A stretch of 56,261 bases of DNA from Bacteroidota bacterium (GTDB lineage: Bacteria; Bacteroidota; Bacteroidia; Chitinophagales; Chitinophagaceae): assembly GCA_026391455.1 (NCBI GenBank), contig JAPLEH010000072.1, positions 1-56,261 on the forward strand, in the 5' to 3' direction. The position numbers were made by a program, and so were the translations under genes. Each line of letters starts with the position of its first letter. Within the stretch, counting starts at the first letter, position 1. Below the pieces are notes generated by a model. The model was given only the letters and a program-made list of their open reading frames with translations. It made no database searches and was not told where the DNA came from. Positions 4,324-17,998 of this stretch are shown piece by piece.

Positions 4324-4549
4324 CCAGTGATTTCGTCCCGGTATCAAAAGGGGTATGAATCAATGGCCGAAAGAGACTTTTGAACTTGCAGCCCCTTCAA
4401 TTTATGTTAAGTTAAAGAAAAGGGAAGCGAAATTGACATTATCTATCAAAAAAGAAACCCATCTAAATATATGTTAATCAATGTATTATATATATAATCG
4501 CTGGCGCAGTCAAAGTTTTCCCACATTGAATAAAATTCTTTCTCAACTA
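4324..4549. other. Intergenic region before the S10 promoter
   Basis: No gene is supported in these 226 bp. Open frames on both strands here overlap the promoter described next and have no family resemblance. The rpsL-rpsG-fusA genes that often precede rpsJ are absent. Confidence 0.5.
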
Positions 4550-4581
4550 TTTGGAACGTATGGGGCTTACCCCTACCTTTG
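4550..4581 (+). promoter_or_regulatory. Bacteroidota-type promoter of the S10-spc cluster
   Basis: TTTG at 4550-4553, a 20-nt spacer, and TACCTTTG at 4574-4581 match the phylum's -33/-7 consensus (TTTG, TAnnTTTG) perfectly. Transcription should start near 4587, leaving a leader of about 25 nt before rpsJ. The promoter rules out the longer rpsJ frame starting at 4579. Confidence 0.85.
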
Positions 4582-4611
4582 CACTCCCAAAAGAAAATTG
4601 GGTATTCACAC

Positions 4612-4917
4612 ATGTCGCAGCGAATCAGAATCAAATTACAGTCTTACGATCACAACCTGGTAGATAAATCTGCAGAAAAAATCGTAAAAACCGTACGCAG
4701 TACTGGTGCAGTAGTAACAGGCCCTATTCCCCTGCCTACCCGCCGCAAAATTTTTACAGTATTGCGTTCACCCCACGTTAATAAGAAGAGTCGTGAACAG
4801 TTTCAGCTCGCTACACATAAGCGTTTGCTGGATATTTACACTTCTTCCAGCCGTACGGTAGATGCGTTGAGTAAGCTCGACCTGCCCAGTGGTGTGGAAG
4901 TAGAGATCAAAGCGTAA
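4612..4917 (+). CDS. rpsJ: 30S ribosomal protein S10
   Basis: 101 residues, the usual length. It contains the characteristic G-P-I-P-L-P-T motif and the [12 protein letters not shown] segment. The start is ATG 4612 because the upstream in-frame ATG lies inside the promoter -7 box. S10 sits in the 30S head and also acts as NusE in antitermination. It is the first gene of the cluster and is separated from rplC by a long structured leader. Confidence 0.98.
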
Positions 4918-5278
4918 AAGGCGCTGTGGCGATGAAGGTGTTGCTTAATGAATAAAGCAAAAAGTTCTTAAAATAAATTTTCGTTATCTCTCAATTCGTT
5001 TCGGCGAAAAAAAGAGCTCTGACATTAACGGCTGCCAATTGTTACGACAATTAGCAGTTAAACATAAAACAAGCCATTCAGGGTTTGTTTACTGCCGGTA
5101 CTTCTACTTCCTGATTCAAATCAGGAAAACAAAGGAAAAGGTCGGCAGCAAACGGGGATTGACCCCCCGGATAATATTTTTTCGTTTTAGATTCAAGGCA
5201 TGCCATGTATCTACAACGAAAAAAATAAAAAATATCCGGAGAATGTCCCAATAATCCTGCAGGCATAAATTGATCAAC
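4918..5278 (+). promoter_or_regulatory. Structured rpsJ-rplC leader (candidate r-protein autoregulatory RNA)
   Basis: This 361-nt spacer holds consecutive stems. They are CTGC-c-AATTGT/ACAATT-a-GCAG (5032-5057, loop TACG); AAACAAGCC/GGTTTGTTT (5067-5090); an arm pair CTGCCG/CGGCAG (5092-5097 with 5143-5148) enclosing TTCCTGATT/AATCAGGAA (5108-5127); and a long A/T-rich stem starting CCGGATA (5167-5173) and closing with TATCCGG (5233-5239). No gene fits here. Ribosomal operons are often controlled by such leaders (for example the L4-responsive S10 leader of enterobacteria), but the ligand here is unknown. Confidence 0.5.
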
Positions 5279-5896
5279 ATGAAAGGTATTATTGGGAAAA
5301 AAATCGGGATGACGAGTGTCTTCGATCCCGCAGGCAAACAGACCGCCTGTACCATCATTGAAGCAGGGCCCTGTGTGGTGACCCAGGTTAAGACCAAAGA
5401 GTCTGACGGCTACAATGCTCTCCAGCTTTCTTTCGGCGACAAAAAGGAAAAGAATACTACTAAAGCCGAGAAGAACCACTTCGCAAAAGCACAAACCGCC
5501 CCAAAACGGTTTTCCAAAGAATTCAGAGATTATTCCATTGAAAAAAATATTGGTGAAACCATTACTCTCGACATTTTCGCTGAAGGCGATAAAGTTGAAG
5601 TGGTAGGTACCACAAAAGGTAAAGGTTTCCAGGGTGTGGTAAAACGCCACGGTTTCCATGGTGTGGGCCAGCAATCACACGGTCAGCACGACCGTCAGAG
5701 AGCTCCGGGTTCACTGGGTAACTCTTCAGACGCTTCCCGCGTAATGAAGGGTATGCGCATGGCCGGCCGTATGGGTAACGACCGTGTAAAACTGAAAGGA
5801 CTGAAAGTGGTGAAGATTTTCCCTGAGAAAAACTACATCCTGATCAGCGGATCTGTTCCCGGTCATATCGGTTCTATCGTATTAATCCAGAAGTAA
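5279..5896 (+). CDS. rplC: 50S ribosomal protein L3
   Basis: 205 residues. It opens with [11 protein letters not shown], the family signature. The loop containing [18 protein letters not shown] reaches towards the peptidyl-transferase centre. ATG 5279 is chosen over a TTG at 5270. It is the first gene after the structured leader and is followed at 40 nt by rplD. Confidence 0.98.
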
Positions 5897-5916
5897 AGAC
5901 AAGGCACGCCTTGTCT
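5897..5916. repeat. Perfect palindrome in the rplC-rplD spacer
   Basis: AGACAAGG, loop CACG, CCTTGTCT begins at the last base of the rplC stop region and fills half of the 40-nt spacer. There is no U-run, so it is not a terminator. Similar GAGAC...GTCTC palindromes are a common dispersed type in Bacteroidota genomes (from memory, not checked here). Confidence 0.6.
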
Positions 5917-5936
5917 CAACAATAAACAAGAAAGAA

Positions 5937-6572
5937 ATGCAAGTAGAAGTTTTAAATACAAACGGGAAAGCAACAGGCAGAACAGTAGAACTGCCCGAAG
6001 AGATCTTCGGTGCTGAACCCAATAATCACGTGATTTACCTTGCCGTGAAACAATACCTTGCTGCACAACGCCAGGGTACACATAAAGTAAAGACTCGTGC
6101 GGAAGTACAAGGTGCAAGCCGCAAACTGCACCGTCAAAAAGGTACCGGTGGTAGCCGTAAGGGTAATATCCGTAACCCCTTGTACAAAGGTGGTGGTACT
6201 ATCTTCGGTCCCAAACCTCACAGCTATGATATCAAGCTGAACAGGAAAGTAAAAGACCTGGCTAAAATATCTGCCCTGTCTCACAAAGCAAAAGAAAATG
6301 CGATCGTGGTGGTGGAAGATATCACTATGGATAAGCCTAAAACAAAAACCTTTGTAGACATTCTGGGTAACCTGAAACTGGCTGATAAGAAGTCAATGTT
6401 CATCATGCCTGAATACAATGACAATGTGCAGATGTCTATCCGCAATGTACCTTCTGTTCTCGGTGTATTGCTTAGCGATATCAACACTTATGACATTGTA
6501 AACTCTGAAGTACTGGTGCTGACAGAAAGTGCAGCTAAGATCTTTACTGACGAAGACAAGGCAGAAGCATAA
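5937..6572 (+). CDS. rplD: 50S ribosomal protein L4
   Basis: 211 residues. It shows the H-K-V-K-T-R-A-E-V-Q-G region with R-Q-K-G-T-G-G-S-R-x-G (exit-tunnel loop, where macrolide-resistance changes occur in other bacteria) and the typical C-terminal V-L-V-L-T-E-S-A motif. In some bacteria L4 represses its own operon through the S10 leader; whether it does so here is unknown. rplW follows after 28 nt. Confidence 0.98.
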   Translation: MQVEVLNTNGKATGRTVELPEEIFGAEPNNHVIYLAVKQYLAAQRQGTHKVKTRAEVQGASRKLHRQKGTGGSRKGNIRNPLYKGGGTIFGPKPHSYDIKLNRKVKDLAKISALSHKAKENAIVVVEDITMDKPKTKTFVDILGNLKLADKKSMFIMPEYNDNVQMSIRNVPSVLGVLLSDINTYDIVNSEVLVLTESAAKIFTDEDKAEA

Positions 6573-6600
6573 TTACAAATTGATTAAAGCATAATAAGCG

Positions 6601-6900
6601 ATGAAAGTATCTGACGTTTTAATAAAACCCATTTTGACAGAAAAAGCAAATGCACAGCAGGAAAAACTGCGCCGCTATGCGTTCAAAGTGGCCCGTAAAG
6701 CCAATAAACTGGAGATCAAAAAAGCGATCGAAAGTTTCTATGGTGTTACCGTAACAGCCGTGAACACTGCTGTGGTACCGGGAAAAAACAAAAGCCGTTT
6801 TACAAAAGCCGGTGTTATTTCAGGCCGCAAGCCTGCTTATAAAAAGGCCTATGTAACGGTGGCAGAAGGTGAGAATATCGATCTCTATTCGAATATTTGA
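6601..6900 (+). CDS. rplW: 50S ribosomal protein L23
   Basis: 99 residues, beginning S-D-V-L-I-K-P-I-L-T-E-K as in the family. L23 lies at the exit of the peptide tunnel and is the docking site for trigger factor and SRP. The gene is followed by a 90-nt spacer containing a small ACCGGTAATACCGG repeat before rplB. Confidence 0.97.
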   Translation: MKVSDVLIKPILTEKANAQQEKLRRYAFKVARKANKLEIKKAIESFYGVTVTAVNTAVVPGKNKSRFTKAGVISGRKPAYKKAYVTVAEGENIDLYSNI

Positions 6901-6990
6901 TCCCTGTTTCTATAATGGCAATCAACCGCCGCGAAGTGTTGGAATAAGTAACCGGTAATACCGGGAAAAACAAAACGAAGAAATTTAAAA

Positions 6991-7827
6991 ATGGCACTCA
7001 GAAAATTTAAACCCATTACCGCTGGTACCCGCTGGAGAATTGGTAATGCCTACGCGGAAGTAACTACCAATGTACCTGAAAAGACACTGGTGGAAGCAAA
7101 ACCCAGAACCGGAGGTCGTAACTCTTCAGGTCACCTGTCTATGCGTTACAGAGGTGGTGGACACAAGAAGAAATATCGTATCATCGATTTCAAAAGAAAT
7201 AAAGCAGGCGCAGCTACTGTAGAGTCTGTTCAATATGATCCCAATCGTACCGCTTTTATCGCCCTGCTGAATTATGCAGATGGTGAAAAACGCTATATCC
7301 TCGCCCCCCAGGGCCTGCAGGTAGGTGCTATCGTGGAAAGTGGTGCTGATGTTGCCCCCGAAGTAGGAAATGCACTGCCAATGAAGAATATGCCCCTTGG
7401 TACCAACGTGCATAATATCGAAATGCAGCCTGGCCAAGGTGGTAAACTTGCCCGCAGTGCCGGATCATCTGCACAGCTTACCAACAAAGAAGAAAAATAT
7501 GCGATCCTGAAGATGCCTTCCGGAGAGCTGAGAAAAGTACTGATCAACTGTTATGCAACCGTAGGTGTGGTAAGCAACAGCGACCACTTCCTGCAGAGCA
7601 TGGGTAAAGCAGGCCGTAACCGCTGGAAAGGTATCAAACCCAGAAACCGTGGTGTGGCGATGAACCCTGTAGATCACCCGATGGGTGGTGGTGAAGGTAA
7701 AGCTTCCGGTGGACAGCCCCGCAGCAGAAACGGACAGTACTCAAGAGGTCTGAAGACAAGAACGAAAGGAAAAGGAAGTGATAAGATGATCATTCAGCGT
7801 AAGAACGGAAGTAAACTGGCTAAATAA
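6991..7827 (+). CDS. rplB: 50S ribosomal protein L2
   Basis: 278 residues, the normal length. Family motifs are [10 protein letters not shown] near the N-terminus and [16 protein letters not shown], which carries the conserved histidine near the peptidyl-transferase centre. The C-terminus is lysine-rich. It is followed by a 122-nt spacer bracketed by inverted repeats. Confidence 0.98.
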
Positions 7828-7833
7828 AATGAA

Positions 7834-7944
7834 TAATGTGCAAATATGAAAATGTGAAAATTAAATTCATGTTTGCTCCTTGTAAATAAAATTTTGATAG
7901 TGGGAATCATTTTCACATTTCCACATTTTCAAATTTTCAAATTT
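7834..7944. repeat. Spacer-bracketing inverted repeat, rplB-rpsS (element 1)
   Basis: The left arm (7834-7860) begins 6 nt after the rplB stop and contains AAATATGAAAATGTGAAAA. The right arm (7910-7944) contains TTTTCACATTTCCACATTTTC followed by two CAAATTTT words and ends 5 nt before the rpsS ATG. The arms pair over about 20 bp with few mismatches, so the whole 122-nt spacer would fold into one stem and bring stop and start within about 12 nt. Four more spacers in this cluster have the same construction. Confidence 0.75.
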
Positions 7945-7949
7945 AAAAA

Positions 7950-8219
7950 ATGGCACGTTCGATTAAAAAAGGTCCTTACATCGCTACCCACCTCGAGAAA
8001 AAGGTGATGGCTATGAACGAAGGCAAAAACAAAAAAGGGGTGATCAAGACCTGGAGCCGCCGCTCTACTATCTCTCCTGATTTTGTGGGACACACATTTG
8101 CTGTGCACAATGGCAATAAGTTCATCCCGGTATATGTAACGGAATTCATGGTGGGACATAAGTTAGGTGAATTTGCACCAACCCGCCAGTTCAAAGGACA
8201 CTCTAAGAAAGATGGTTAA
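7950..8219 (+). CDS. rpsS: 30S ribosomal protein S19
   Basis: 89 residues. It starts [10 protein letters not shown], and the family core W-S-R-R-S-T-I and [14 protein letters not shown] are present. S19 is in the 30S head near the A-site finger. The ATG is preceded by AAAAAA rather than a Shine-Dalgarno site, and these A's are the tail of the upstream repeat arm. Confidence 0.98.
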
Positions 8220-8257
8220 TATGGTTCCGGGAATTTTTCCCGCCATGTATAAACCTC

Positions 8258-8330
8258 AGTAAACAAAGAATTTCATTGCTATCAGGAAAGAGTTTATCAC
8301 TCAGGACTTATAGCTAAAAGCTAAATAAAA
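8258..8330 (+). repeat. Dispersed repeat copy in the rpsS-rplV spacer
   Basis: The 33 nt at 8258-8290 (core ACAAAGARTTTCATTGCT, then CAGGAAA) recur almost unchanged at 10498-10528 in the rpmC-rpsQ spacer. Downstream, both copies end with AGCT-word runs (here AGCTAAAAGCTAAA) directly before the start codon. The first half of this spacer also has a GGGAA/TTCCC hairpin near 8230. The resemblance is far above chance for unrelated spacers. Confidence 0.65.
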
Positions 8331-8756
8331 ATGGGATCCAGAAAAAAAATTGCGGCGGAAGCCCGTAAGGAAAAAAGGAAATCATACTTCGGTGCTACAC
8401 TGAATAACTATCCCACATCTCCCCGTAAGATGAGGTTATTAGCAGACCTGATCCGCGGTATGAATGTGGAGAAAGCTCTGGCAGTACTGGAACACAGTGC
8501 CAAACATTCATCTGAGCCGATGCGCAAACTTGTATTGAGTGCCATCAACAACTGGAAACAGAAAAACGAAGGCGGAGATGAAAGCCAATTGATCGTAAAA
8601 ACAGTATTTGTCGATGGTGCCCGTACGCTGAAACGTATGCGCCCGGCTCCTCAGGGACGTGGCTACCGTGTACGTAAACGCAGCAACCACGTAACTGTGA
8701 TAGTGGGTACTAAAGAAGAAGCCACAGTTGTAACTGAAACGAAAGAAACGAAATAA
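8331..8756 (+). CDS. rplV: 50S ribosomal protein L22
   Basis: 141 residues, somewhat longer than the approximately 110 of E. coli. The central [13 protein letters not shown] motif and the tunnel loop around [14 protein letters not shown] are typical. The N-terminal basic extension and the E/T/K-rich C-terminal tail (T-E-T-K-E-T-K) account for the extra length and are common in this phylum. Confidence 0.98.
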
Positions 8757-8819
8757 CAAATAACGAATCCCAAAGGCCCGAACGGCACTTGGAATTTTAA
8801 ACCTGGAATTTTTAATATT

Positions 8820-9599
8820 ATGGGTCAGAAAGCAAATCCGATTGGTAACAGGTTAGGCATCATCCGCGGTTGGGAGTCTAACTGGTACGGCAGCAAAAAA
8901 GATTATGCCGGTAAACTGATCGAGGACCACAAAATCAGGACATACCTGAACGCACGTATCAACAAGGGTGGTATCTCCAAAATTGTGATCGAGCGTACAC
9001 TGGGTAAACTGATCGTTACTATCCATACCTCCAAGCCCGGTATCATCATCGGAAAAGGTGGTGGGGAAGTAGATCGTATCAAGGAAGAACTGAAGAAGCT
9101 TACTGGTAAAGATGATGTGCAGATCAACATCCTGGAGATCCGCCGTCCTGAGCTGGATGCGATGATCGTGGGTGACACGATTGCGCGCCAGATCGAAAAC
9201 CGTATCAACTTCAAACGTGCTACCAAAATGGCTATTGCCTCTGCACTGCGTATGGGTGCTGAAGGGATAAAAATAAAATTAAGCGGACGTCTGGCTGGTG
9301 CAGAGATCGCACGTAGCGAGGAGTTCAAACAGGGGCGTGTACCCCTCCACACATTCCGTATGGATATTGATTATGCCAACGTGTTCGCACAAACCGTTTA
9401 TGGTAAAATCGGTATCAAAGTATGGATATGTAAAGGTGAAGTACTGGCGAAGAGAGATCTGAACCCCAATTTCATTGCCGGCGGTAAGAACGAAGGCGGC
9501 GGTGGTGAAAGAAGGGAAAGAAATGAAGGCCGTGGCGGTGATCGCCGTGATGACAGAAGAGGCGGCGACAGAAGAGGCGGAGGCGGAAGAAGAAACTAA
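8820..9599 (+). CDS. rpsC: 30S ribosomal protein S3 with Gly/Arg/Asp-rich C-terminal tail
   Basis: 259 residues. It starts [12 protein letters not shown], with the KH domain [10 protein letters not shown] and the usual R-R-P-E-L-D region; S3 forms part of the mRNA entry pore and helicase. After about residue 221 the sequence becomes a low-complexity tail of G, R, E, D and N ([10 protein letters not shown], then repeated R-R-G-G-D). This resembles RGG-type RNA-binding segments and extends beyond the E. coli protein. The spacer before it ends in the word pair GGAATTTTAAACCTGGAATT. Confidence 0.97.
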
Positions 9600-9602
9600 T
9601 AT

Positions 9603-9699
9603 GCAAATGTGAAAATGTGCGTATGTGTGAATAACACCAACACATTAAAATCAGAACAGTCATTTTCACATTTCCACATTTTCTAATTTTCAAATTTTT
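9603..9699. repeat. Spacer-bracketing inverted repeat, rpsC-rplP (element 2)
   Basis: Left arm 9603-9631 (CAAATGTGAAAATGTG then GTATGTGTGAA) starts 4 nt after the rpsC stop. Right arm 9661-9699 (CATTTTCACATTTCCACATT, then A/T-rich CAAATTTT words) ends 6 nt before the rplP start. AAATGTGAAAATG pairs perfectly with CATTTTCACATTT. It has the same family and placement as the rplB-rpsS element, but the loop sequence is unrelated. Confidence 0.78.
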
Positions 9700-9705
9700 T
9701 ATAAA

Positions 9706-10128
9706 ATGTTACAACCGAAAAGATCGAAGCACAGGAAAATGCAGAAGGGTCGCATGAAAGGCGACGCGAAAAGAGGAGCCACTATTTCATTTGGTTCTTA
9801 TGCATTGAAAGCGCTGGATAGTCACTGGATTACTGATCGCCAGATTGAAGCTGCACGTCAGGCTCTTACCCGTGAAATGAAAAGGGAAGGTAATGTGTGG
9901 ATCCGCATTTTCCCCGACAAACCCATTACCCGCAAACCTGCCGAAGTAAGGATGGGTAAAGGTAAAGGTAACCTGGAGTTCTGGGCAGCAGTGGTAAAAC
10001 CCGGTCGTATCTTATTCGAGATCGACGGCGTAAGTGAGACCGTAGCACGCGCTTCCCTGTCGCTCGCCGCAGGTAAACTGCCAATCAAAACGAAGTTCAT
10101 CATGCGCCGTGACCTGGTTACTGCGTAA
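9706..10128 (+). CDS. rplP: 50S ribosomal protein L16
   Basis: 140 residues. It starts [11 protein letters not shown], followed by the family features [18 protein letters not shown] and the K-G-K-G-N-L-E-F-W loop; L16 organises the A-site and 5S rRNA region. The start follows the A/T-rich arm of the preceding repeat. Confidence 0.98.
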
Positions 10129-10135
10129 GATATAA

Positions 10136-10244
10136 AAGTGTAAATGTGAAAATGTGTAAATGTGTGATCGGGGACGGTAGGAACAAATAGTGGTGAAGAG
10201 CAGAACGAAAGCAGCACATTTCCAAATTCCGAATTATCAAATTA
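10136..10244. repeat. Spacer-bracketing inverted repeat, rplP-rpmC (element 3)
   Basis: Left arm 10136-10166 is a run of three GTAAATGTG-type words (AAATGTGAAAATGTGTAAAT in the middle). Right arm 10214-10244 (GCACATTTCCAAATTCCGAA, then TTATCAAATTA) ends 6 nt before the rpmC ATG. Pairing is less perfect than in elements 1 and 2, but the word composition and the stop-proximal/start-proximal placement are the same. Confidence 0.68.
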
Positions 10245-10250
10245 ACAACG

Positions 10251-10457
10251 ATGTCAAAGAAAGCAGATTTTGTAAAAAGCATTCACGGTATGAATGAGCA
10301 GGACCTGAAGGCCCGGCTCGAAGAAGACAAACAACGCCTGAAAAAGCTGGAGTTTGCACATGCCATTTCTCCGCTGGAAAACCCGATGTCTATCCGTGCC
10401 TTACGTAAGGACATCGCCAGGTTGAATACTGAATTGAAATTAAAGCAACAAGCATAA
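10251..10457 (+). CDS. rpmC: 50S ribosomal protein L29
   Basis: 68 residues. The two-helix family pattern is present: L-K-A-R-L-E-E-D-K-Q-R-L-K-K-L-E-F, then N-P-M-S-I-R-A-L-R-K-D-I-A-R-L-N-T. L29 lies next to L23 at the tunnel exit. rpsQ follows after 110 nt. Confidence 0.96.
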   Translation: MSKKADFVKSIHGMNEQDLKARLEEDKQRLKKLEFAHAISPLENPMSIRALRKDIARLNTELKLKQQA

Positions 10458-10460
10458 ATC

Positions 10461-10566
10461 ATAGCTATCTGCTTATAGCTGAAGCTGTGGGCCGATTAGT
10501 AACAAAGAGTTTCATTGCTGCAGGAAACGGGTATCAGACTCCAACCAGGCAGCTCAAAGCTTAAAA
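10461..10566. repeat. AGCT-word spacer repeat, rpmC-rpsQ, with second copy of the dispersed core
   Basis: The left side (10461-10487) is made of AGCT words (ATAGCTATCTGCTTATAGCT). The right side (10550-10563, CAGCTCAAAGCTTA) lies directly before the rpsQ start and can pair with it partly. In between, 10498-10528 repeats the core found at 8258-8290. The rpsQ-rplN spacer ends with a related arm (AGAGCTCAAAGCTTAAATAA, near 10902-10921). Confidence 0.6.
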
Positions 10567-10567
10567 A

Positions 10568-10825
10568 ATGGAAGCAAGAAATTTAAGAAAAACAAGGATA
10601 GGTGTGGTAACCAGCAACAAAATGGCAAAGACCATTACGGTAGCGGTTGAAAGAAAAGTAAAGCACCCTATCTATGGAAAATTCGTGAAGAAGACCACCA
10701 AATTCCACGCGCATGATGATAAAAATGAATGCAGCATTGGTGATGTGGTGAAAATTATGGAGACCCGCCCCCTCAGCAAAACAAAACGCTGGAGACTGGT
10801 GGAAGTAGTGGAGAAAGTGAAGTAA
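10568..10825 (+). CDS. rpsQ: 30S ribosomal protein S17
   Basis: 85 residues. It shows [16 protein letters not shown] and the oligonucleotide-binding signature [18 protein letters not shown], both diagnostic. It is an early-binding 16S rRNA protein. It sits between two AGCT-word spacers. Confidence 0.98.
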
Positions 10826-10925
10826 TATTATCAGTGCGTGCTACTGGCCCAGTCAGTTGCCGTAATAACTAATAATTGTGTAAACTGCTCGCAGCCCACA
10901 GCTAAGAGCTCAAAGCTTAAATAAA

Positions 10926-11294
10926 ATGATTCAGCAAGAAAGCCGGTTAAATGTAGCGGACAACAGCGGTGCCAAAGAGGTGCTTTGTATTCGTGTACTA
11001 GGCAACAGCGGTCAGCGTTATGCCGGAATTGGCGACAAGATTGTAGTTACCGTTAAAGATGCTTTGCCACAAGGTGGTATCAAAAAAGGTACCGTGGCAA
11101 AAGCCGTAATCGTTCGTACCACTAATAAACTGCGTCGTAAAGACGGATCCTATATCCGCTTTGATGACAATGCAGTAGTGATACTGAACCAGGCCGATGA
11201 GCCCCGCGGTACACGTATTTTCGGCCCGGTAGCCAGAGAACTTCGTGATAAAGGATATATGAAAATTATATCACTGGCCCCTGAAGTATTATAA
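10926..11294 (+). CDS. rplN: 50S ribosomal protein L14
   Basis: 122 residues, the standard length. It starts [17 protein letters not shown], with the C-terminal signature [15 protein letters not shown]14 contributes to the intersubunit bridge and is the binding site of RsfS. Confidence 0.98.
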
Positions 11295-11298
11295 TCCA

Positions 11299-11374
11299 TC
11301 CGCCCGGGCAGGCGGTTAAAAACAGGGTTATCCCTGGTACGATACAAAATAATTAATCATCCGCCACAGCGGAT
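11299..11374. repeat. Three tandem small hairpins, rplN-rplX spacer
   Basis: Within 76 nt there are CCGCC/GGCGG (11300-11315), CAGGG/CCCTG (11323-11336, loop TTAT) and ATCCGC/GCGGAT (11359-11374, loop CACA). None has a U-run. The first and third share the CCGCC/GGCGG motif, suggesting copies of one short palindromic repeat. The spacer is 93 nt. Confidence 0.6.
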
Positions 11375-11387
11375 AAAGAATAGAAAA

Positions 11388-11732
11388 ATGAAAGCAAGAT
11401 TTAAACCAAAGTACAATATCCGTAAAGGAGACAATGTAGTGGTGATTGCCGGAGACGACAAAGACCTAGCAAAACCCCGCATAGTAAAAGAAGTGCTGGT
11501 GGATGAAGCTAAAGTGATCGTGGAAGGTGTTAACATCATTTCCCGACACACCAAACCATCTGCTCAAAACACCCGCGGTGGTATTGTGAAAAAAGAAGCT
11601 CCGATCCACATCAGCAATGTTATGCTTTGGGACGCTGCTCAAAAGGCCGGTGCCCGCGTAACACGTGTACGCAAAGACGGCAAAACAGAACGAGTGTTTA
11701 AAACAAAAAAAACGCAGGGAGGTAAAAAATAA
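11388..11732 (+). CDS. rplX: 50S ribosomal protein L24
   Basis: 114 residues. The KOW motif is visible as [15 protein letters not shown], and the segment [10 protein letters not shown] is typical. It starts 50S assembly. Its stop overlaps the next start (TAATG), the only overlapping pair in the ribosomal cluster, which implies translational coupling with rplE. Confidence 0.97.
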
Positions 11733-12301
11733 TGAGTACTAAAACTTATACCCCGAGACTGGCAGATAAGTACAAAAACGATGTTGTACCTGCTCTGGTA
11801 AAAAAATTCGCTTACGGATCTGTAATGCAGGCTCCGCGGCTGGAAAAGATTTGCCTGAACCGTGGCGTAAACGGTGCAGTATCTGACAAAAAACTGGTGG
11901 ATATTGCCCTGGAAGAACTTACCATCATCAGCGGACAGAAAGCGGTAGCCACCCAGTCTAAGAAGGATATCTCCAACTTTAAACTCCGTAAGAATATGCC
12001 GATCGGAGCAAGAGTAACACTCCGTGGTGATAAAATGTACGAATTCCTCGACCGTCTTATCGCAGTGGCGCTTCCCCGTGTACGTGATTTCAAAGGTGTG
12101 AACGAAAAAGCTTTTGATGGCCGTGGTAACTATACACTGGGTGTAACCGAGCAGATCATTTTCCCCGAGATCGACATCGATAAGGTAAATCGTATTACTG
12201 GTCTGGATATTACATTCGTTACCACAGCCGGTACCGATGAAGAGGCATATGAACTGTTGAAAGAACTCGGAATGCCTTTCAAAAACGCGTCAAAAAATTA
12301 A
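11732..12301 (+). CDS. rplE: 50S ribosomal protein L5
   Basis: 189 residues. Family features are I-C-L-N-R-G-V-N in place of the usual K-I-x-x-N-x-[10 protein letters not shown], and [17 protein letters not shown]. It binds 5S rRNA and contacts P-site tRNA. The start is fixed by the 1-nt TAATG overlap with rplX. Confidence 0.98.
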
Positions 12302-12381
12302 TAATAAACTATCCTGTGCGAACGCCGGTAAAAACGGGAACCACAAAGGATATCGAATTTTAAAACTGGAATTTTAAAACT

Positions 12382-12651
12382 ATGGCAAAAACATCAGTAA
12401 CAGCCAGGCAAGCAAAAAGAGAGCGTATGGTGGCACAACATGCTACTAAAAGAGCCGAGCTGAAAAAAGCAGGCGATTGGAAAGCGCTTGATGAAATGCC
12501 CAGGAATTCTTCCAAGGTTCGGTTGAAGAACCGTTGCCAGATCACCGGCCGTCCGAAAGGATATATACGTTATTTCGGTCTGTCCAGGATCATGGTAAGG
12601 GATATGGCCCTGAACGGAAAAATACCCGGACTTAAAAAAGCCAGCTGGTAA
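12382..12651 (+). CDS. rpsN: 30S ribosomal protein S14 (zinc-free form)
   Basis: 89 residues with the C-terminal signature [14 protein letters not shown]. Only one cysteine is present, so this is the long C-minus form without the CxxC zinc ribbon of the 61-residue type. Its start is preceded by the word pair GAATTTTAAAACTGGAATTT, similar to the one before rpsC. Confidence 0.97.
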
Positions 12652-12729
12652 GAAGCTGGAAACAGGTAAGGCCTCTTGCCGGACCTGCGTAAAACAAAAA
12701 TTCAGAACTGATTTAATTCAAGTAATAAT

Positions 12730-13128
12730 ATGGTAACAGATCCTATAGCAGACTACCTGACCAGAATACGTAACGCACAAATGGCTGGTCACCGTGTGGT
12801 GGATATTCCTGCTTCTAACTTAAAGAAGCGTATTACAGAGATCCTGTACAATCAAGGCTATATCCTGAAATACAAATTTGAGGATGACAGTAAACAAGGC
12901 GTGATCAAAATCGCTTTGAAATATGATCCCTCTACGAAGCAACCTGCTATTCAGAGCATGGAAAGAATCAGCAGCCCCGGTTTACGTCAGTATGCCAGGC
13001 CCGCAGAATTCCGCCGTGTAAAAAATGGCCTGGGTGTGGCAATCATCTCCACTTCAAAAGGTGTGATGACCGACAAAGAAGCGAAAGCGCAGAATGTAGG
13101 TGGTGAAATACTTTGCTATATCTATTAA
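12730..13128 (+). CDS. rpsH: 30S ribosomal protein S8
   Basis: 132 residues. It has D-P-I-A-D-Y-L-T-R-I-R-N-A near the N-terminus and the C-terminal S-T-S-K-G-V-M-T-D-K-E-A block. In enterobacteria S8 is the autoregulator of the spc operon. The spacer before it has a CAGGT..GGC/GCC..ACCTG hairpin (12663-12687). Confidence 0.98.
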   Translation: MVTDPIADYLTRIRNAQMAGHRVVDIPASNLKKRITEILYNQGYILKYKFEDDSKQGVIKIALKYDPSTKQPAIQSMERISSPGLRQYARPAEFRRVKNGLGVAIISTSKGVMTDKEAKAQNVGGEILCYIY

Positions 13129-13139
13129 ATGATAATAAA

Positions 13140-13188
13140 ATTTCTGATACATTAAGCTGAATCTATACTAAGCTGACCGGTCAGAAAT
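13140..13188. repeat. Bracketing inverted repeat, rpsH-rplF spacer
   Basis: ATTTCTGA (13140-13147) and TCAGAAAT (13181-13188) are perfect inverted copies enclosing two direct TAAGCTGA words. It fills most of the 88-nt spacer, with the arms 11 nt after the stop and 28 nt before the start. The sequence differs from the AAATGTG family, but the layout is the same. Confidence 0.55.
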
Positions 13189-13216
13189 ATTCACAACAAA
13201 CGAAAATAAATACAAC

Positions 13217-13771
13217 ATGTCACGTATAGGTAAGAAACCCGTAACAGCTCCAGGTGGTGTAACGATCTCCGTAGGTAAAGATAATGTGGTAACTGTAAAG
13301 GGACCCAAAGGCGAACTGAAACAAGCTATTGACCGCGATATCGCAGTAGAGATCAAAGATGGTAACATCATTTTTAACCGTCCTACTGATCAGATCCGTC
13401 ATCGCGCATTACACGGTCTATACCGTTCACTCGTGTCAAACATGGTGAAAGGTGTAACTGATGGATTCGAAAGAAAACTGGAACTGATCGGGGTAGGTTT
13501 CAAAGCCGCTAATCAGGGAAATGTACTCGACCTCGCATTAGGTTATTCGCACAATATTATTTTCGAAGTTCCCAAAGAACTGAAAGTGGCTACTGCTCAG
13601 GAAAAAGGTCAAAACCCGATCATTACTCTTGAAGGTATCGACAAACAACTGATCGGACAGGTGGCAGCCAAATTGCGCAGCCTTCGTAAGCCTGAACCGT
13701 ACAAAGGAAAAGGTGTACGCTATGTAGGTGAAGTGGTACGTAAGAAAGCTGGTAAAGCTGCTGGTAAGTAA
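13217..13771 (+). CDS. rplF: 50S ribosomal protein L6
   Basis: 184 residues. It starts M-S-R-I-G-K-K-P-V, with the duplicated fold and the C-terminal K-P-E-P-Y-K-G-K-G-V-R-Y signature. L6 lies near the sarcin-ricin loop. A 138-nt spacer with an inverted repeat follows. Confidence 0.98.
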   Translation: MSRIGKKPVTAPGGVTISVGKDNVVTVKGPKGELKQAIDRDIAVEIKDGNIIFNRPTDQIRHRALHGLYRSLVSNMVKGVTDGFERKLELIGVGFKAANQGNVLDLALGYSHNIIFEVPKELKVATAQEKGQNPIITLEGIDKQLIGQVAAKLRSLRKPEPYKGKGVRYVGEVVRKKAGKAAGK

Positions 13772-13774
13772 TCA

Positions 13775-13868
13775 AGGTGAAAATGTGATAAATGTGCTGA
13801 TCTGGAAATTGGCATACGAACAGCGACGAATGGAATTCTCACATTTTCATATTCTCAAATTTTGAAAG
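13775..13868. repeat. Spacer-bracketing inverted repeat, rplF-rplR (element 4)
   Basis: The left arm (AGGTGAAAATGTGATAAATG, from 13775) begins 3 nt after the rplF stop. The right arm (TCTCACATTTTCATATTCTC then AAATTTTGA, 13837-13866) closes it: TGAAAATGTGA pairs with TCACATTTTCA. Unlike the other copies, about 40 extra nt lie between the right arm and the rplR start. Confidence 0.7.
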
Positions 13869-13909
13869 TATCATTCCTGGCAGAATCAGGGATTTAAATA
13901 AGAAAGAAA

Positions 13910-14272
13910 ATGAACCCAAAAGTAAAATCACAAAGAAGAAGTAATATCCGCTACCGGATACGTCGTAGAATCGGCAACGGTACTGCACAAAAGCCCCGTC
14001 TCTCTGTTTACAGGAGCAACGCTGATATTTATGTGCAACTGATTGACGATGCTAATGCACAAACACTGGCGGCAGCCTCTTCAAGGGATAAAGATATCAG
14101 TTCACAGAAACTGCCCAAAAAAGACAAAAGCAAACTGGTGGGTGAATCCATTGCCCGTAAAGCAGCAGCACTGGGAATAAAAGATGTTGTGTTTGACAGG
14201 GGAGGATACCTCTACCACGGCCGCGTAAAATCTGTGGCTGATGGAGCAAGGGAAGGTGGACTTCAATTTTAA
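13910..14272 (+). CDS. rplR: 50S ribosomal protein L18
   Basis: 120 residues. The family pattern [20 protein letters not shown] and the C-terminal [13 protein letters not shown] are present. It binds 5S rRNA. rpsE follows after 32 nt. Confidence 0.98.
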
Positions 14273-14304
14273 TTTTTATAGCAAACTTTTAATTACAAGT
14301 ATAA

Positions 14305-14823
14305 ATGTCAAAGCTTAACGTAAATAAGGTAAAAGCCGGAGACCTGGAACTGAAAGATAAAGTGGTGGCCATTAACCGCGTGGTAAAAACAACCAAAGGC
14401 GGACGTGCCTTCAGTTTTTCTGCTCTCGTGGTAGTTGGCAATGAAAACGGTGTGGTGGGCCATGGCCTCGGTAAAGCCAAAGAAGTTCAGGAAGCTATTA
14501 CAAAAGGTATCGAAGATGCCAAGAAGAACCTGATCAAAGTTCCTGTAATGAAAGGCACTATCCCCCACGACCAATGGGCGAAAGAAGGCGCTGCTAAAGT
14601 GCTGATCAAACCCGCCGCACATGGTACGGGTGTGATCGCAGGAGGCTCAATGCGTGCTGTGCTGGAAGCTGCAGGTGTAACAGACGTACTGGCAAAATCA
14701 CTCGGCTCTGCCAACCCCCACAACGTGGTAAAGGCAACCTTCAAAGCGCTGGCTTTGTTACGTGAGCCGATTACTGTTGCCAAAACACGTACCCTCGGCC
14801 TTAAAAAAGTATTCAACGGTTAA
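14305..14823 (+). CDS. rpsE: 30S ribosomal protein S5
   Basis: 172 residues. It shows R-V-x-K-T-x-K-G-G-R-x-F-S-F and G-N-x-x-G-x-V-G-x-G-x-G-K-A-K-E-V, the double-stranded-RNA-binding fold, and a C-terminal [15 protein letters not shown]. Together with S3 and S4 it forms the mRNA entry site. Confidence 0.98.
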
Positions 14824-14842
14824 TCTAACTAATAAACCCAGT

Positions 14843-14860
14843 AATCCCTCCGCAGGGATT
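14843..14860. repeat. Hairpin in the rpsE-rpmD spacer
   Basis: AATCCCT, loop CCGC, AGGGATT followed by only TTGG. The U-run is too short for a strong terminator. It could mildly attenuate or protect upstream mRNA ends, or be one more dispersed palindrome. Confidence 0.5.
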
Positions 14861-14883
14861 TTGGATTTACAAACTGGAAAGAA

Positions 14884-15063
14884 ATGAGCAAGATTAAAAT
14901 TACACTGGTAAAAAGCCCGATTGACAGACCGGAACGCCAAAAGCTGACCGTACAGGCACTCGGCCTTAATAAGACCAACTCTGTAAAAGAGGTGGAAGCT
15001 ACTCCTCAAATCCTGGGTATGATCCGTAAGGTATCTCACCTGGTTAAAGTGGAAAATGCCTAA
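14884..15063 (+). CDS. rpmD: 50S ribosomal protein L30
   Basis: 59 residues; the small size is normal for this protein. The sequence starts [13 protein letters not shown] and contains [10 protein letters not shown] and [11 protein letters not shown], the L30 signature. It sits between rpsE and rplO as in most bacteria. Confidence 0.96.
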
Positions 15064-15071
15064 ACCCGCTG

Positions 15072-15153
15072 TGGGAATTTGTAAATGTGTCGGAAAGTGA
15101 AAATAGCGTAACGCAACATTCACACACACATTTCCAGATTTCCACTTTTTAAC
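15072..15153. repeat. Spacer-bracketing inverted repeat, rpmD-rplO (element 5)
   Basis: Left arm from 15072 (TGGGAATTTGTAAATGTGT) starts 8 nt after the rpmD stop. Right arm 15121-15153 (CACACACACATTTCCAGATT then TCCAC) pairs with it. About 49 nt remain between the right arm and the rplO start. It belongs to the same AAATGTG word family as elements 1-4. Confidence 0.68.
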
Positions 15154-15202
15154 ATTAGTATTAAGCGAGGGGTGATTCCCCGTAAGTATAAAATCAAAAA
15201 AA

Positions 15203-15652
15203 ATGAAATTACATCAATTAAAGCCTGCAAAAGGCGCAACACACAAAGACAAACGTATTGGCCGTGGTGACGGTTCCGGACATGGTGGTACTTCTACAAA
15301 AGGTACAAAGGGTGGACAAAGCCGCGCCGGTTATAAAAGTAAAATGGCCCACGAAGGTGGTCAGATGCCCATTCAGCGCCGTATTCCTAAGCGTGGGTTT
15401 AAGAATCCCCACCGCATTGAGTACAAAGTACTCAACCTGGGTCAGATAGCGCAATTGGCGGAAAAATATAACATCACTGAATTCTCACTGGAAAATCTTT
15501 ATATCAATGGCCTGATCGCTCAGACTGACAGAGTAAAGATTCTGGGAAATGGGGAGCTGAACGGCAAATACAGCTTTAAAGTAAATGCTATCAGTGAAAA
15601 AGCAAAAGCCGCCATTGAAGCAGCAGGCGGAACTGTGGAAATAGTGAAGTAA
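15203..15652 (+). CDS. rplO: 50S ribosomal protein L15
   Basis: 149 residues. The glycine-rich N-terminus (R-I-G-R-G-D-G-S-G-H-G-G-T-S-x-K-G) and G-F-x-N-P-H-R-I-E-Y are typical. It is the last ribosomal protein gene of the cluster and is followed by a terminator before secY. Confidence 0.98.
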   Translation: MKLHQLKPAKGATHKDKRIGRGDGSGHGGTSTKGTKGGQSRAGYKSKMAHEGGQMPIQRRIPKRGFKNPHRIEYKVLNLGQIAQLAEKYNITEFSLENLYINGLIAQTDRVKILGNGELNGKYSFKVNAISEKAKAAIEAAGGTVEIVK

Positions 15653-15698
15653 TTTCAGTAACTTACACGGCGCATTTTAAGTGCGTCTTTTATTTAAT

Positions 15699-15733
15699 AC
15701 CAGTTAGTTAAAATAGTTGACTGGTTTTTTTTT
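15699..15733 (+). terminator. Intrinsic terminator/attenuator between rplO and secY
   Basis: ACCAGT (15699-15704) and ACTGGT (15720-15725) enclose a further partly paired region and are followed by a run of T's to 15733. It lies only 25 nt before the secY start. Upstream, CGCA/TGCG plus a T-rich stretch (about 15670-15695) may add to it. This would let ribosomal protein mRNA end before secY, with partial read-through. Confidence 0.65.
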
Positions 15734-15758
15734 AGTGGCTTTAAACTTTTAAATCCCC

Positions 15759-17102
15759 GTGAAGAAATTAATACAGACACTGAAGAATATCTGGAGCATC
15801 GAAGAGCTGCGAGGAAAGATTCTTTTCACCCTGATGATGATCGCCATCTACAGGGTGGGGTCGCATATCGCACTCCCTGGTATTAACCCCAATGAGATTG
15901 CAGCCAAAGGAGATGGAAACTCCGGTATCCTTGGCCTTATTGATGCATTCTCCGGAGGCTCATTCAGCAATGCTTCCATTTTTGCGCTCGGTATCATGCC
16001 TTATATATCTGCCTCGATCTTTATGCAACTGATGACCGTATTGGTTCCCAGTTTCCAGAAAATGCAAAAAGAAGGGGAGAGCGGACGTAAAAAAATCAAC
16101 CAATACACCCGTTACCTCACCGTCGCTGTAACTGTTTTACAGGCATCAGCATATGTGGGATATCTGAACAGTTTAGCGAAGAACTCACCCGGTATGATTT
16201 ATAGTTCCAGCTATCCGTTCTGGTTGTCAACTACTATCGTGCTTACTGCCGGTACAATGTTCGTAATGTGGATGGGCGAAAAGATCACTGACAAAGGATT
16301 GGGAAATGGTACTTCACTTATTATCATGATCGGAATCGTGGCACGTCTCCCGCAAAACTTCTTACAGGAGTTGAGTGCCAAATCCACTCGTAATGGTCAG
16401 ATACTGATCTTTATCGTGGAGATCGCTATCCTCATTGCTATCGTAATGGGCTGTATCATGCTGATTCAGGGGGTACGTAAAGTACCGGTAAATTACGCCA
16501 AACAAATCGTGGGCAACAGGCAATTTGGCGGAGCCCGCCAGTTCCTGCCGCTCAAAGTGAACAGTGCTGGTGTAATGCCTATCATCTTTGCTCAGGCTAT
16601 CATCTTCATACCTACCATTATCGGTAACTTTGGAAGTTCCAGTCAGGGTGGCGGTATCATGCGGCTGCTGACTGACCACAGTAATGTTTGGTATATGCTG
16701 ATCTATTCCATCGTGGTAATCGGCTTCACGTTCCTGTACACAGCCCTTATATTTAACCCCAAGCAGATTGCTGATAATCTGAAACAGAATAATGGTTTTA
16801 TCCCCGGCGTAAAACCCGGTCAGCCTACAGCCGATTATATCGGGGCTATTATGGATAAAATTACCTTCCCCGGTGCCATTATGCTGGCGTTTGTAGGTAT
16901 CCTGCCGGGTATCGCACAGCGTATGGGTGTAACTCAGCAATTCTCTACCTTCTTTGGAGGTACTTCCCTCCTGATTATGGTGGGAGTTATTCTGGATACA
17001 TTACAGCAGATTGAAACCCAATTGCTGATGCGCCAGTACGATGGCCTGATGAAAAGCGGTCGTATCCAGGGCAGACAAACGTCATCAGCCGTACAGATGT
17101 AA
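15759..17102 (+). CDS. secY: Protein translocase subunit SecY
   Basis: 447 residues with ten predicted membrane helices. It is the channel-forming subunit that moves unfolded proteins across the inner membrane with SecE/SecG and SecA. Family features are the R-V-G-S-H-I-A-L-P-G-I N-terminal segment, the plug region G-G-S-F-S-N-A-S-I-F-A-L-G-I-M-P-Y-I-S-A-S-I and a G-x-L-P-G-I near the end. The start is GTG, unlike the ATG starts of the ribosomal genes, and terminators flank it on both sides, suggesting lower expression than its neighbours. Confidence 0.97.
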   Translation: MKKLIQTLKNIWSIEELRGKILFTLMMIAIYRVGSHIALPGINPNEIAAKGDGNSGILGLIDAFSGGSFSNASIFALGIMPYISASIFMQLMTVLVPSFQKMQKEGESGRKKINQYTRYLTVAVTVLQASAYVGYLNSLAKNSPGMIYSSSYPFWLSTTIVLTAGTMFVMWMGEKITDKGLGNGTSLIIMIGIVARLPQNFLQELSAKSTRNGQILIFIVEIAILIAIVMGCIMLIQGVRKVPVNYAKQIVGNRQFGGARQFLPLKVNSAGVMPIIFAQAIIFIPTIIGNFGSSSQGGGIMRLLTDHSNVWYMLIYSIVVIGFTFLYTALIFNPKQIADNLKQNNGFIPGVKPGQPTADYIGAIMDKITFPGAIMLAFVGILPGIAQRMGVTQQFSTFFGGTSLLIMVGVILDTLQQIETQLLMRQYDGLMKSGRIQGRQTSSAVQM

Positions 17103-17121
17103 TAAAGACCTTGAACATATC

Positions 17122-17157
17122 AGCCCGGCAGTTTATACTTGCCGGGCTTTATTTTTT
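17122..17157 (+). terminator. Strong terminator after secY
   Basis: AGCCCGGCA (17122-17130), a 9-nt loop, TGCCGGGCT (17140-17148), then TTATTTTTTT. It ends the secY transcript 20-55 nt after its stop and thereby separates map from the cluster. Confidence 0.9.
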
Positions 17158-17169
17158 TAAAGATATTTG
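17138..17169 (+). promoter_or_regulatory. Possible map promoter overlapping the secY terminator
   Basis: CTTG at 17138-17141, a 20-nt spacer, and GATATTTG at 17162-17169 (7 of 8 to TAnnTTTG) have the same geometry as the rpsJ promoter. The start of transcription would fall near 17175, one or two nt before the map ATG, giving a nearly leaderless mRNA. Confidence 0.4.
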
Positions 17170-17176
17170 CAAAACA

Positions 17177-17998
17177 ATGGCCCAGATAAAAACAGATGCC
17201 GAAGTAGAACTGATGCGGCAAAGTGCCCTCCTCGTGAGTAAAACCCTTACGGAAGTAGCTACCATGCTTAAGCCGGGCATGACAAGTATGTACATCGATA
17301 ACTTTATCGGTTCATTTGTACGGGATCATGGCGCCGTTCCTTCCTTTCTAAACTATCATGGGTATCCTTTTAACTCCTGTTTGTCTGTTAACGATGTGGT
17401 GGTACACGGATTTCCGTCCGAAGCTGAATTGAAAGAAGGGGATATCATTTCTGTGGATATAGGGGTGATCTTAAACGGCTGGCATGGCGATCATGCCTAC
17501 ACATTTGCCATTGGTGACCCCGGGGAAGAAGTGATAAAGCTGATTCAGGTTACTAAGGAATCCCTCTATAAAGGCATTGAAAAAGCCATAAGCGGCAACA
17601 GAACGGGCGATATCGGTTTTGCCATACAAGAACATACCGAAAAGAAACACGGCTACGGAGTGGTACGCGAACTGGTGGGACATGGGCTGGGCCGAAACCT
17701 GCATGAGGACCCGCAAGTGCCGAATTACGGAAAGCGTGGCAGCGGAACCAAACTGAAAGAAGGTATGGTACTCGCTATAGAACCGATGATCAACCTCGGA
17801 AAAAAAGATGTATATACAGAATCAGATGGATGGACCGTACGTACCCGGGACCATAAAGCATCCGTACATTTTGAACATGATGTATGCGTACGCAAACATC
17901 AGGCGGATATTCTCTCCGATTACAGTATCATTGAAAAAGCAGAGAAGGCAAACCCCAACCTGTTTACTTCAAAACCAGTATTACTCTCCGCAGAATGA
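17177..17998 (+). CDS. map: Methionine aminopeptidase, type I
   Basis: 273 residues from ATG 17177. A longer frame from 17111 would read through the secY terminator stem, so it is rejected. The enzyme removes the initiator methionine from new proteins. Metal ligands are visible in S-V-D-I-G-V-I-L-N-G-W-H-G-D-H-A (two Asp), E-L-V-G-H-G-L-G (His) and A-I-E-P-M-I (Glu), plus the last Glu in S-V-H-F-E-H-D. In many genomes infA and the alpha operon follow map; here a convergent unrelated gene follows 9 nt after the stop. Confidence 0.96.
   Translation: MAQIKTDAEVELMRQSALLVSKTLTEVATMLKPGMTSMYIDNFIGSFVRDHGAVPSFLNYHGYPFNSCLSVNDVVVHGFPSEAELKEGDIISVDIGVILNGWHGDHAYTFAIGDPGEEVIKLIQVTKESLYKGIEKAISGNRTGDIGFAIQEHTEKKHGYGVVRELVGHGLGRNLHEDPQVPNYGKRGSGTKLKEGMVLAIEPMINLGKKDVYTESDGWTVRTRDHKASVHFEHDVCVRKHQADILSDYSIIEKAEKANPNLFTSKPVLLSAE

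What the first reader, a model, noticed from the sequence alone, without database searches (positions are those of the whole stretch)
7834..15153. Five ribosomal spacers are bracketed by AAATGTG-word inverted repeats
In the spacers rplB-rpsS, rpsC-rplP, rplP-rpmC, rplF-rplR and rpmD-rplO the left arm starts 3-8 nt after the stop codon. In three of them the right arm ends 5-6 nt before the next ATG; in the other two it lies 40-50 nt before. Arms are built from the word AAATGTGAAAATGTG and its complement, while the loop sequences between them are unrelated. If folded, each spacer collapses and the ribosome could pass from stop to start; the A/T-rich right arm also supplies the A-rich start context this phylum uses instead of Shine-Dalgarno sites. 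Other spacers use other words (AGCT, TTTCTGA) in a similar layout. This could be a translational coupling device, or a mobile repeat that settles only in spacers.
Basis: partly seen in the sequence, partly recalled or inferred. Interest (0 to 1): 0.7.

Follow-up and report, generated by a model that had tools for sequence, protein, structure and literature searches.

The report
Word-built hairpin spacers between operon genes
Several gaps between ribosomal genes in this bacterium are filled with short repeated DNA words placed so that the two ends of a gap can pair with each other; related species show the same layout with other words, but close relatives with small genomes lack it in these genes, so it looks like expanded spacer DNA that folds in the messenger RNA and not like an essential translation device.

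Summary
The inverted AAATGTG-word arms are real: strong in rplB-rpsS and rpsC-rplP, weaker in rplP-rpmC and rplF-rplR, not significant in rpmD-rplO. They belong to a wider class: degenerate tandem arrays of 7-9-bp units, strongly enriched in intergenic DNA, G-rich words on the left of a spacer and C-rich on the right, also between convergent genes. Relatives carry other words in the same spacers, and a spacer's two arms match each other far better than swapped arms. Matched arms go with short tandem-gene spacers, not with ribosomal genes as such. The rplB-rpsS type is better described as two covarying RNA hairpins with complementary loops. Against a coupling device: predicted folds do not shorten the stop-start path, the start side is more open than in shuffles and arm mismatches show no G-U excess, and the eight congeners of 2.6 Mb or less have no arrays in this operon. 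Against a classic MITE: own-genome hits share arm words only. Best reading: spacers expanded by word arrays, retained in polycistronic mRNA mostly when self-complementary; a subset has become conserved RNA structure. Function is inferred, not shown.

The parts
7828..7949 (+). rplB-rpsS spacer; left arm 7835-7861, right arm 7917-7943
   Evidence: the repeat finder 85% complementary; SW 37, 0 of 400 shuffles; similar element at the same spacer in G008, L020 and G304
7838..7878 (+). hairpin H1: 7838-7849 pairs with 7867-7878; loop carries GTGAAAAT 7854-7861
   Evidence: minimum-energy fold; in 7 aligned elements 7 of 10 pairs have changes on both sides
7900..7924 (+). hairpin H2: 7900-7907 pairs with 7917-7924; loop ATTTTCAC 7909-7916 complementary to the H1 loop
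   Evidence: 3 of 8 pairs with changes on both sides; loop-loop complement kept in 98% of cells but nearly invariant, so covariation is not tested
9600..9705 (+). rpsC-rplP spacer; arms about 9598-9635 and 9659-9696
   Evidence: SW 27, 0 of 400 shuffles
10129..10250 (+). rplP-rpmC spacer; left array 10134-10164, right words about 10215-10243
   Evidence: p 0.0125; RNA fold worse than shuffles, z +1.6; 13-22 nt in 17 of 18 congeners
13772..13909 (+). rplF-rplR spacer; arms 13778-13791 and 13836-13849, followed by a separate conserved hairpin before rplR
   Evidence: p 0.0325
15064..15202 (+). rpmD-rplO spacer; weak arms about 15074-15103 and 15122-15147, followed by a conserved GCGAGGGG..CCCCG hairpin before rplO
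   Evidence: p 0.095 for arms; whole spacer RNA z -4.1, second hairpin included
10826..10925 (+). rpsQ-rplN spacer with AGCT words on the start side
   Evidence: start-side stem covaries in the 13 of 51 deduplicated spacers that matched the anchors, 0 of 5000 permutations; the window's own segment pairs only 4 of 8

Best explanation
These are intercistronic spacers that have grown by accumulation of degenerate tandem words (units of 7-9 bp) with a fixed polarity, G-rich words on the stop side and C-rich words on the start side. In short spacers inside polycistronic mRNAs the version that persists is mostly one whose two ends carry the same word in opposite orientation, so that the added RNA folds on itself and leaves the A-rich start region open; some copies (rplB-rpsS type) have become conserved two-hairpin RNA with complementary loops. 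Shown: arrays, unit sizes, polarity, matched arms, turnover between congeners, RNA covariation in the rplB-rpsS type. Inferred: that folding of the spacer is why they persist, and that growth is by slippage-like duplication. It is not needed for translation of the operon in congeners that lack it.
For: Units of 7, 8, 9 and their multiples dominate; sizes 4-6 and 10-13 are absent or rare. Array bases are 1.7-3.2% of intergenic against 0.09% of coding DNA in 40 stretches not chosen for the pattern. Polarity 47 agree, 14 disagree there, 157 to 37 in relatives' ribosomal spacers. Matched arms in 52 of 71 two-sided ribosomal spacers against 15-17% swapped, and in 7 of 11 short same-strand spacers elsewhere (10% swapped). 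Ribosomal spacers fold better relative to shuffles (mean z -2.70, n 448) than other same-strand spacers (-1.24, n 239); start side more open than shuffles in 97 of 120. Two-hairpin type: 0 of 500 shuffles as high, 91% of cells paired against 32-54% when slid. In 16 congeners and this genome, spacer length and array bases follow genome size, Spearman 0.89 each.
Against: Mismatches in array arms show no G-U over A-C excess (56 to 65; 48 to 42 in an earlier cut over all inverted repeats), which selection on RNA pairing should give; they look like independent random bases. rplP-rpmC does not fold as RNA. In the core-anchored hairpin test the absolute score at cores (17.1) barely exceeds that at random anchors (16.5); only the comparison with swaps separates them. 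The z-scores of ribosomal spacers include other conserved hairpins. Convergent spacers (n 61) also fold well (z -2.37), by eye mostly terminators. Related species are not independent. Short convergent spacers with arrays on both sides number only 2 (1 matched), so operon-specificity is not established.
Confidence: 0.45

Rival explanations
1. Translational coupling device: the spacer hairpin masks the downstream start or brings it near the stop, and a terminating ribosome passes on.
For: Arrays lie close to stop and start (median offsets 3 and 5 nt in 71 two-sided ribosomal spacers); elements also in spacers that look like ATP synthase operon spacers; arms co-vary.
Against: Start-side 18 nt are more open than in shuffles; exterior path not shortened; arrays with the same polarity between convergent genes; eight congeners of 2.6 Mb or less have none in this operon. 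Closeness to stop and start would follow from any insertion into a spacer of about 20 nt.
Confidence: 0.15
2. Mobile inverted-repeat element (MITE- or REP-like) that settles in spacers.
For: rplP-rpmC is 122 nt here and 21 nt in G008, one of the closest congeners by S3; the right half of the rplB-rpsS element recurs in other ribosomal spacers of congeners, 97% in G008 rpsC-rplP.
Against: In this genome the other listed hits cover only query 24-67 of 68, the arm words (33 of 55 candidates were scored); many unrelated words share the layout; no Y1 transposase found in G008, a fragmented assembly that has the elements.
Confidence: 0.15
3. Ribosomal-protein-binding leader RNAs inside the operon; the words are incidental. 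This can be true of the rplB-rpsS subtype together with the best explanation.
For: Two-hairpin covariation, rpsQ-rplN stem covariation; right half of rplB-rpsS 92% identical to G008 while 279 of 551 four-fold sites differ in seven genes.
Against: The type occurs at rplB-rpsS, rpsC-rplP, rplV-rpsC and, at lower score, in atp spacers, so no single ligand; no hit in 143 of 147 family genomes at E <= 1e-4 with strict filters; no Rfam match.
Confidence: 0.12
4. Pure mutational by-product: slippage and template switching build arrays and inverted arms; no function.
For: No arrays in this operon in the eight congeners of 2.6 Mb or less; no G-U excess; matched arms not tied to ribosomal genes once length is held; slippage on heptanucleotide units is a published proposal, as summarised in the Introduction of PMC4679880.
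Against: Covariation and conservation of the rplB-rpsS type; mismatches that look random do not suggest one arm copied from the other.
Confidence: 0.3

Closest known systems
Long simple sequence repeats / heptanucleotide repeats of bacteria (Mrazek 2007, not read; as summarised in PMC4679880, Introduction read)
   Same: Tandem units of 5-11 nt, heptanucleotides most abundant in most genomes
   Different: Here units are 7-9 nt, degenerate, with many words per genome, left-right polarity and matched inverted arms
Intergenic TAACTGA heptamer repeats (PMC4679880, passages and Introduction read)
   Same: Direct repeats just before start codons; in one Bacteroidetes genome one set right after a stop in reverse orientation; found in five Bacteroidetes
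   Different: One fixed word; matched arms on both ends of a spacer are not described in the passages seen
REP palindromes with RAYT transposases (PMC3733652, search listing only; RAYT link recalled)
   Same: Short intergenic inverted repeats
   Different: No single family sequence here; Y1 transposase not found in G008
Ribosomal leader RNAs of Bacteroidia and Flavobacteria (PMC7247131, passages read)
   Same: Structured RNA before ribosomal genes
   Different: The table passages list L13 and S4 for Bacteroidia and S4, S15, S16 for Flavobacteria, none for this operon in these lineages; no Rfam match

Membership tests
Long simple sequence repeats (5-11 nt) | tandem repetition of a short unit beyond chance | tested here: met
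   77 segments in the first 21 sources, 0 in shuffles; unit spectrum
Long simple sequence repeats (5-11 nt) | near-identical units | tested here: not met
   units degenerate, mismatches concentrated in columns: variance 1.58 against 0.73 expected, p<0.05 in 40 of 134 arrays
Translational coupling hairpin | start region sequestered until upstream translation | tested here: not met
   start side more open than shuffles in 97 of 120 sampled ribosomal spacers (prediction only)
Translational coupling hairpin | downstream translation depends on upstream translation | not testable with these tools
   needs reporters or profiling
MITE | copies share interior as well as terminal repeats | tested here: not met
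   listed own-genome hits confined to arm words (33 of 55 candidates scored)
MITE | target-site duplication | tested here: inconclusive
   one difference, window against G008 rplP-rpmC, by eye only; flanks too diverged
REP/RAYT | associated Y1 transposase | tested here: inconclusive
   4 in G000, 0 in G008, but G008 is in 1110 contigs
Ribosomal leader RNA | covarying secondary structure | tested here: met
   rplB-rpsS type and rpsQ-rplN stem in 13 spacers
Ribosomal leader RNA | binds an r-protein of the operon | not testable with these tools
   no binding data
Ribosomal leader RNA | match to a described family | tested here: not met
   no Rfam match at gathering score in the window; only E 0.69 in 4000-17200, inside a gene
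Intrinsic terminator | G+C stem followed by T run | tested here: not met
   none of 13 sites lies in the five spacers; shuffles give 8.7, sd 3.1

The most novel reading that the evidence does not exclude
A class of intercistronic RNA in Chitinophagaceae in which a stop-side hairpin presents a loop word that pairs with a start-side arm (loop-loop or pseudoknot), placed in ribosomal and ATP synthase operons, and in which the word itself is swapped between spacers and species while the complementarity is kept: a rewritable, self-complementary spacer code whose arms are written with fixed strand polarity at gene ends.
Probability: 0.2. Interest if true: 0.8.

Novelty: new variant of a known kind. 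Interest (0 to 1): 0.5.

Why it matters
Bacteroidetes naturally lack Shine-Dalgarno sequences (PMC6847099, start of abstract seen in the listing), so what lies between operon genes may matter for start choice. Here spacer words differ between species while self-complementarity recurs, and small-genome relatives lack the arrays in the same operon. That is a natural experiment on whether intercistronic structure matters; the unexplained 7-9 unit size and strand polarity point to an unknown way in which intergenic DNA grows.

Tried and rejected
Half-spacer duplex energies were too crude. Genome-wide arm matching without regard to arrays picked mostly terminator-like hairpins, judged by eye. RNA alignment of 33 rpsQ-rplN spacers gave no consensus fold; the anchored stem test could use only 13 of 51. 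A telomerase-like or reverse-transcriptase origin, suggested by G-rich strands pointing outward from genes, found no RVT_1 match in 11 of 14 genomes searched, among them G000, G001, G008, G010 and G015. The apparent ribosomal specificity of matched arms (Fisher 5e-7, 52 of 71 against 8 of 36) disappeared when spacer length was held and is withdrawn. Absence of arrays in small congeners by intergenic count alone is not significant (0 of 22 against 40 of 392, p 0.15); the operon comparison carries that claim, on rounded genome sizes and 16 of the 18 congeners fetched, some of them incomplete. On checking, my confidence in the best explanation went from 0.5 to 0.45 because the control is weaker than I first wrote. 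The rivals overlap, so the odds need not add to one.

Errors and dropped rows: the rplC query was read out of frame (13 stops), so rplC-rplD rows are unreliable; without them the main counts are unchanged (65 of 444 instead of 449; polarity 60 to 22 and 97 to 15; 52 of 71), but still contain a few. One search read only plus-strand loci and was redone. L003 duplicates the window; 15 of 77 near-duplicate loci were dropped; short spacers were dropped as stated per call. One search covered 69 of the 80 loci and 17 of the 18. Genes in stretches are simple longest-ORF calls with some errors; the stretches were not screened for other ribosomal genes and several were chosen around AATGTG hits; one 'array' is a run of N. 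Literature: five repeat words searched in full text, none found; other searches are.
Full report
OBSERVATION. The window is contig C55 of a 5.5 Mb genome whose S3 protein is closest to records named Chitinophagaceae. The five spacers hold 9 of 13 AAATGTG and 7 of 13 CACATTT of the window in 627 of 56,261 bases. Left half against right half exceeds all 400 dinucleotide shuffles in rplB-rpsS and rpsC-rplP, is modest in rplP-rpmC (p 0.0125) and rplF-rplR (0.0325) and not significant in rpmD-rplO (0.095). In rplF-rplR and rpmD-rplO a separate hairpin, conserved in relatives, fills the last part before the start, which explains why the right arm lies further back there.

WIDER CLASS. In 40 stretches of the genome not chosen for the pattern, arrays with unit 7, 8 or 9 occur in 40 of 392 intergenic regions of at least 50 bp: 27 of 250 same-strand, 8 of 62 convergent, 5 of 80 divergent; array bases are 3.2, 2.7 and 1.7% against 0.09% of coding DNA. 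Among sizes 4-13 only 7-9 are common; multiples of these and a little at 10 and 23 also appear. Words include AATGTGnn, AATTTGnn, AGGTTnnAT, AGCTnnn and GTACATC. Mismatches concentrate in some unit positions more than expected (variance 1.58 against 0.73; 40 of 134 arrays p<0.05). The doubled word AATGTGNNAATGTG occurs 85 times in this genome and 84 times in congener G010, its reversed control 0 times. Of ten other genomes of the family or class sampled without regard to the pattern, in one or two stretches each, four showed arrays (small samples, one further stretch too short).

POLARITY. In the 40 stretches the array in the left half is G-rich in 26 and C-rich in 8, in the right half C-rich in 21 and G-rich in 6 (p 3e-5). 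It holds for same-strand (29 of 39) and convergent pairs (11 of 12); divergent pairs are too few (7 of 10, p 0.34). Non-array intergenic DNA shows almost no such skew. In relatives' ribosomal spacers: left 60 to 22, right 97 to 15. A rule that also holds between convergent genes is not about stop-to-start passage. I have no tested explanation for it.

MATCHED ARMS. In 62 deduplicated relatives own arms reach the score cut in 65 of 444 spacers, against 3.0% with another spacer of the same species and 2.6% with the same spacer of another species. Among spacers with arrays on both sides, 52 of 71 ribosomal ones match, against 15-17% swapped; elsewhere in this genome 6 of 24 same-strand (13% swapped), 1 of 9 convergent and 1 of 3 divergent. 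Holding length, with stretches of some congeners added, short (60-160 nt) same-strand spacers elsewhere match in 7 of 11 and ribosomal ones in 51 of 70; long same-strand ones in 7 of 23, long convergent in 0 of 7; short convergent ones number only 2, one matched. So matched arms go with short tandem-gene spacers, not with ribosomal genes as such, and operon-specificity is not established. The words at one spacer differ between species (GATGTCT, GGAAGTCGG, GGTGAAAG, AGCT and others).

TURNOVER. In 18 congeners rplP-rpmC is 13-22 nt in 17 and 46 nt in one; here 122, so a gain here is likelier than many losses. Between this genome and G008, 279 of 551 four-fold sites differ in seven genes, so turnover need not be fast. 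Mean operon spacer length and array bases follow genome size in 16 congeners and this genome (Spearman 0.89 each); all eight of 2.6 Mb or less have no array bases (mean spacers 24-47 nt), as does one of 3.4 Mb. Sizes are rounded and some assemblies incomplete.

RNA. RNAalifold on seven rplB-rpsS-type elements gave two hairpins. Counting them plus the loop-loop helix: 91.2% of cells paired, 10 pairs changed on both sides, 0 of 500 shuffles as high, slid structures 32-54%. The structure came from the same sequences, which favours it over slid versions. The loop-loop helix hardly varies and so is not tested. A second test, on 27 spacers with TGAAAA..TTTTCA cores (some of them in the first set), finds core flanks complementary above swaps (17.1 against 14.0, p 0.0001); 5 of 27 rank in the top 5% and 13 in the top 15%; at random anchors own and swapped do not differ (16.5 and 16.4, p 0.42), but the absolute score there is nearly as high. 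A covariance model built from the seven scores 88 bits or more only on them, and the next best is 53 bits, in the loci searched; some matches also appear on the reverse strand, so part of the score is the inverted words. In 147 family genomes 4 have hits at E <= 1e-4: this window (two), G304, G212 and G267; by reading their flanks the last three look like rplB-rpsS, atpF-atpH and atpD-atpC spacers. Congener hits to the right arm also lie between tandem genes that look like rpoA-rplQ, rpmB-rpmG and iscS-iscU (by eye). At rpsQ-rplN a start-side stem covaries in 13 usable spacers (0 of 5000 permutations), though the window's own pairs only 4 of 8.

AGAINST COUPLING. Ribosomal spacers fold better than shuffles (mean z -2.70, n 448) but without a shorter exterior path (median +4.6). 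The last 18 nt before the start are more open than shuffles (0.71 against 0.58; 97 of 120), the first 18 after the stop more paired (0.46 against 0.57). In array arms G-U and A-C mismatches are 56 to 65 and others 225; in other inverted repeats G-U to A-C is 42 to 32: no sign of wobble tolerance in the array arms, and mismatches resemble unrelated bases, as if both arms were built separately from the same word. This weakens RNA selection on the arms and is the main reason for moderate confidence.

CONCLUSION. Real, recurrent in the family, variable, and absent from this operon in small-genome congeners. I commit to expanded, self-complementary spacers (0.45), with pure by-product the strongest rival (0.3).

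Noticed in passing
window 6917-6949 (rplW-rplB): Strongly conserved ATGGCAATCAACCGCCGCGAAGTGTTG segment in several congeners: a 10-codon ORF (MAINRREVLE) or an RNA hairpin.
   Followed up: no
window about 13148-13190 (rpsH-rplF): Conserved CTGATACATTAAGCYGAA..ARGCTGACCGGTCAG element in congeners, RNA-like, no Rfam match.
   Followed up: no
window about 13876-13894 and 15164-15188: Conserved hairpins TCCTGGCAGAATCAGGGA before rplR and GCGAGGGG..CCCCGTAAGT before rplO across genera.
   Followed up: partly
window 5177-5224: 24-nt inverted repeat, 88% complementary, no loop, upstream of rplC.
   Followed up: no
G000:C16:14629-14779 (in L093): Long array alternating AAATGTG and AGATGTG units, minisatellite-like.
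   Followed up: no
rpsQ-rplN spacers of relatives: Conserved CAGCCTCTGA motif in a number of relatives' spacers.
   Followed up: no
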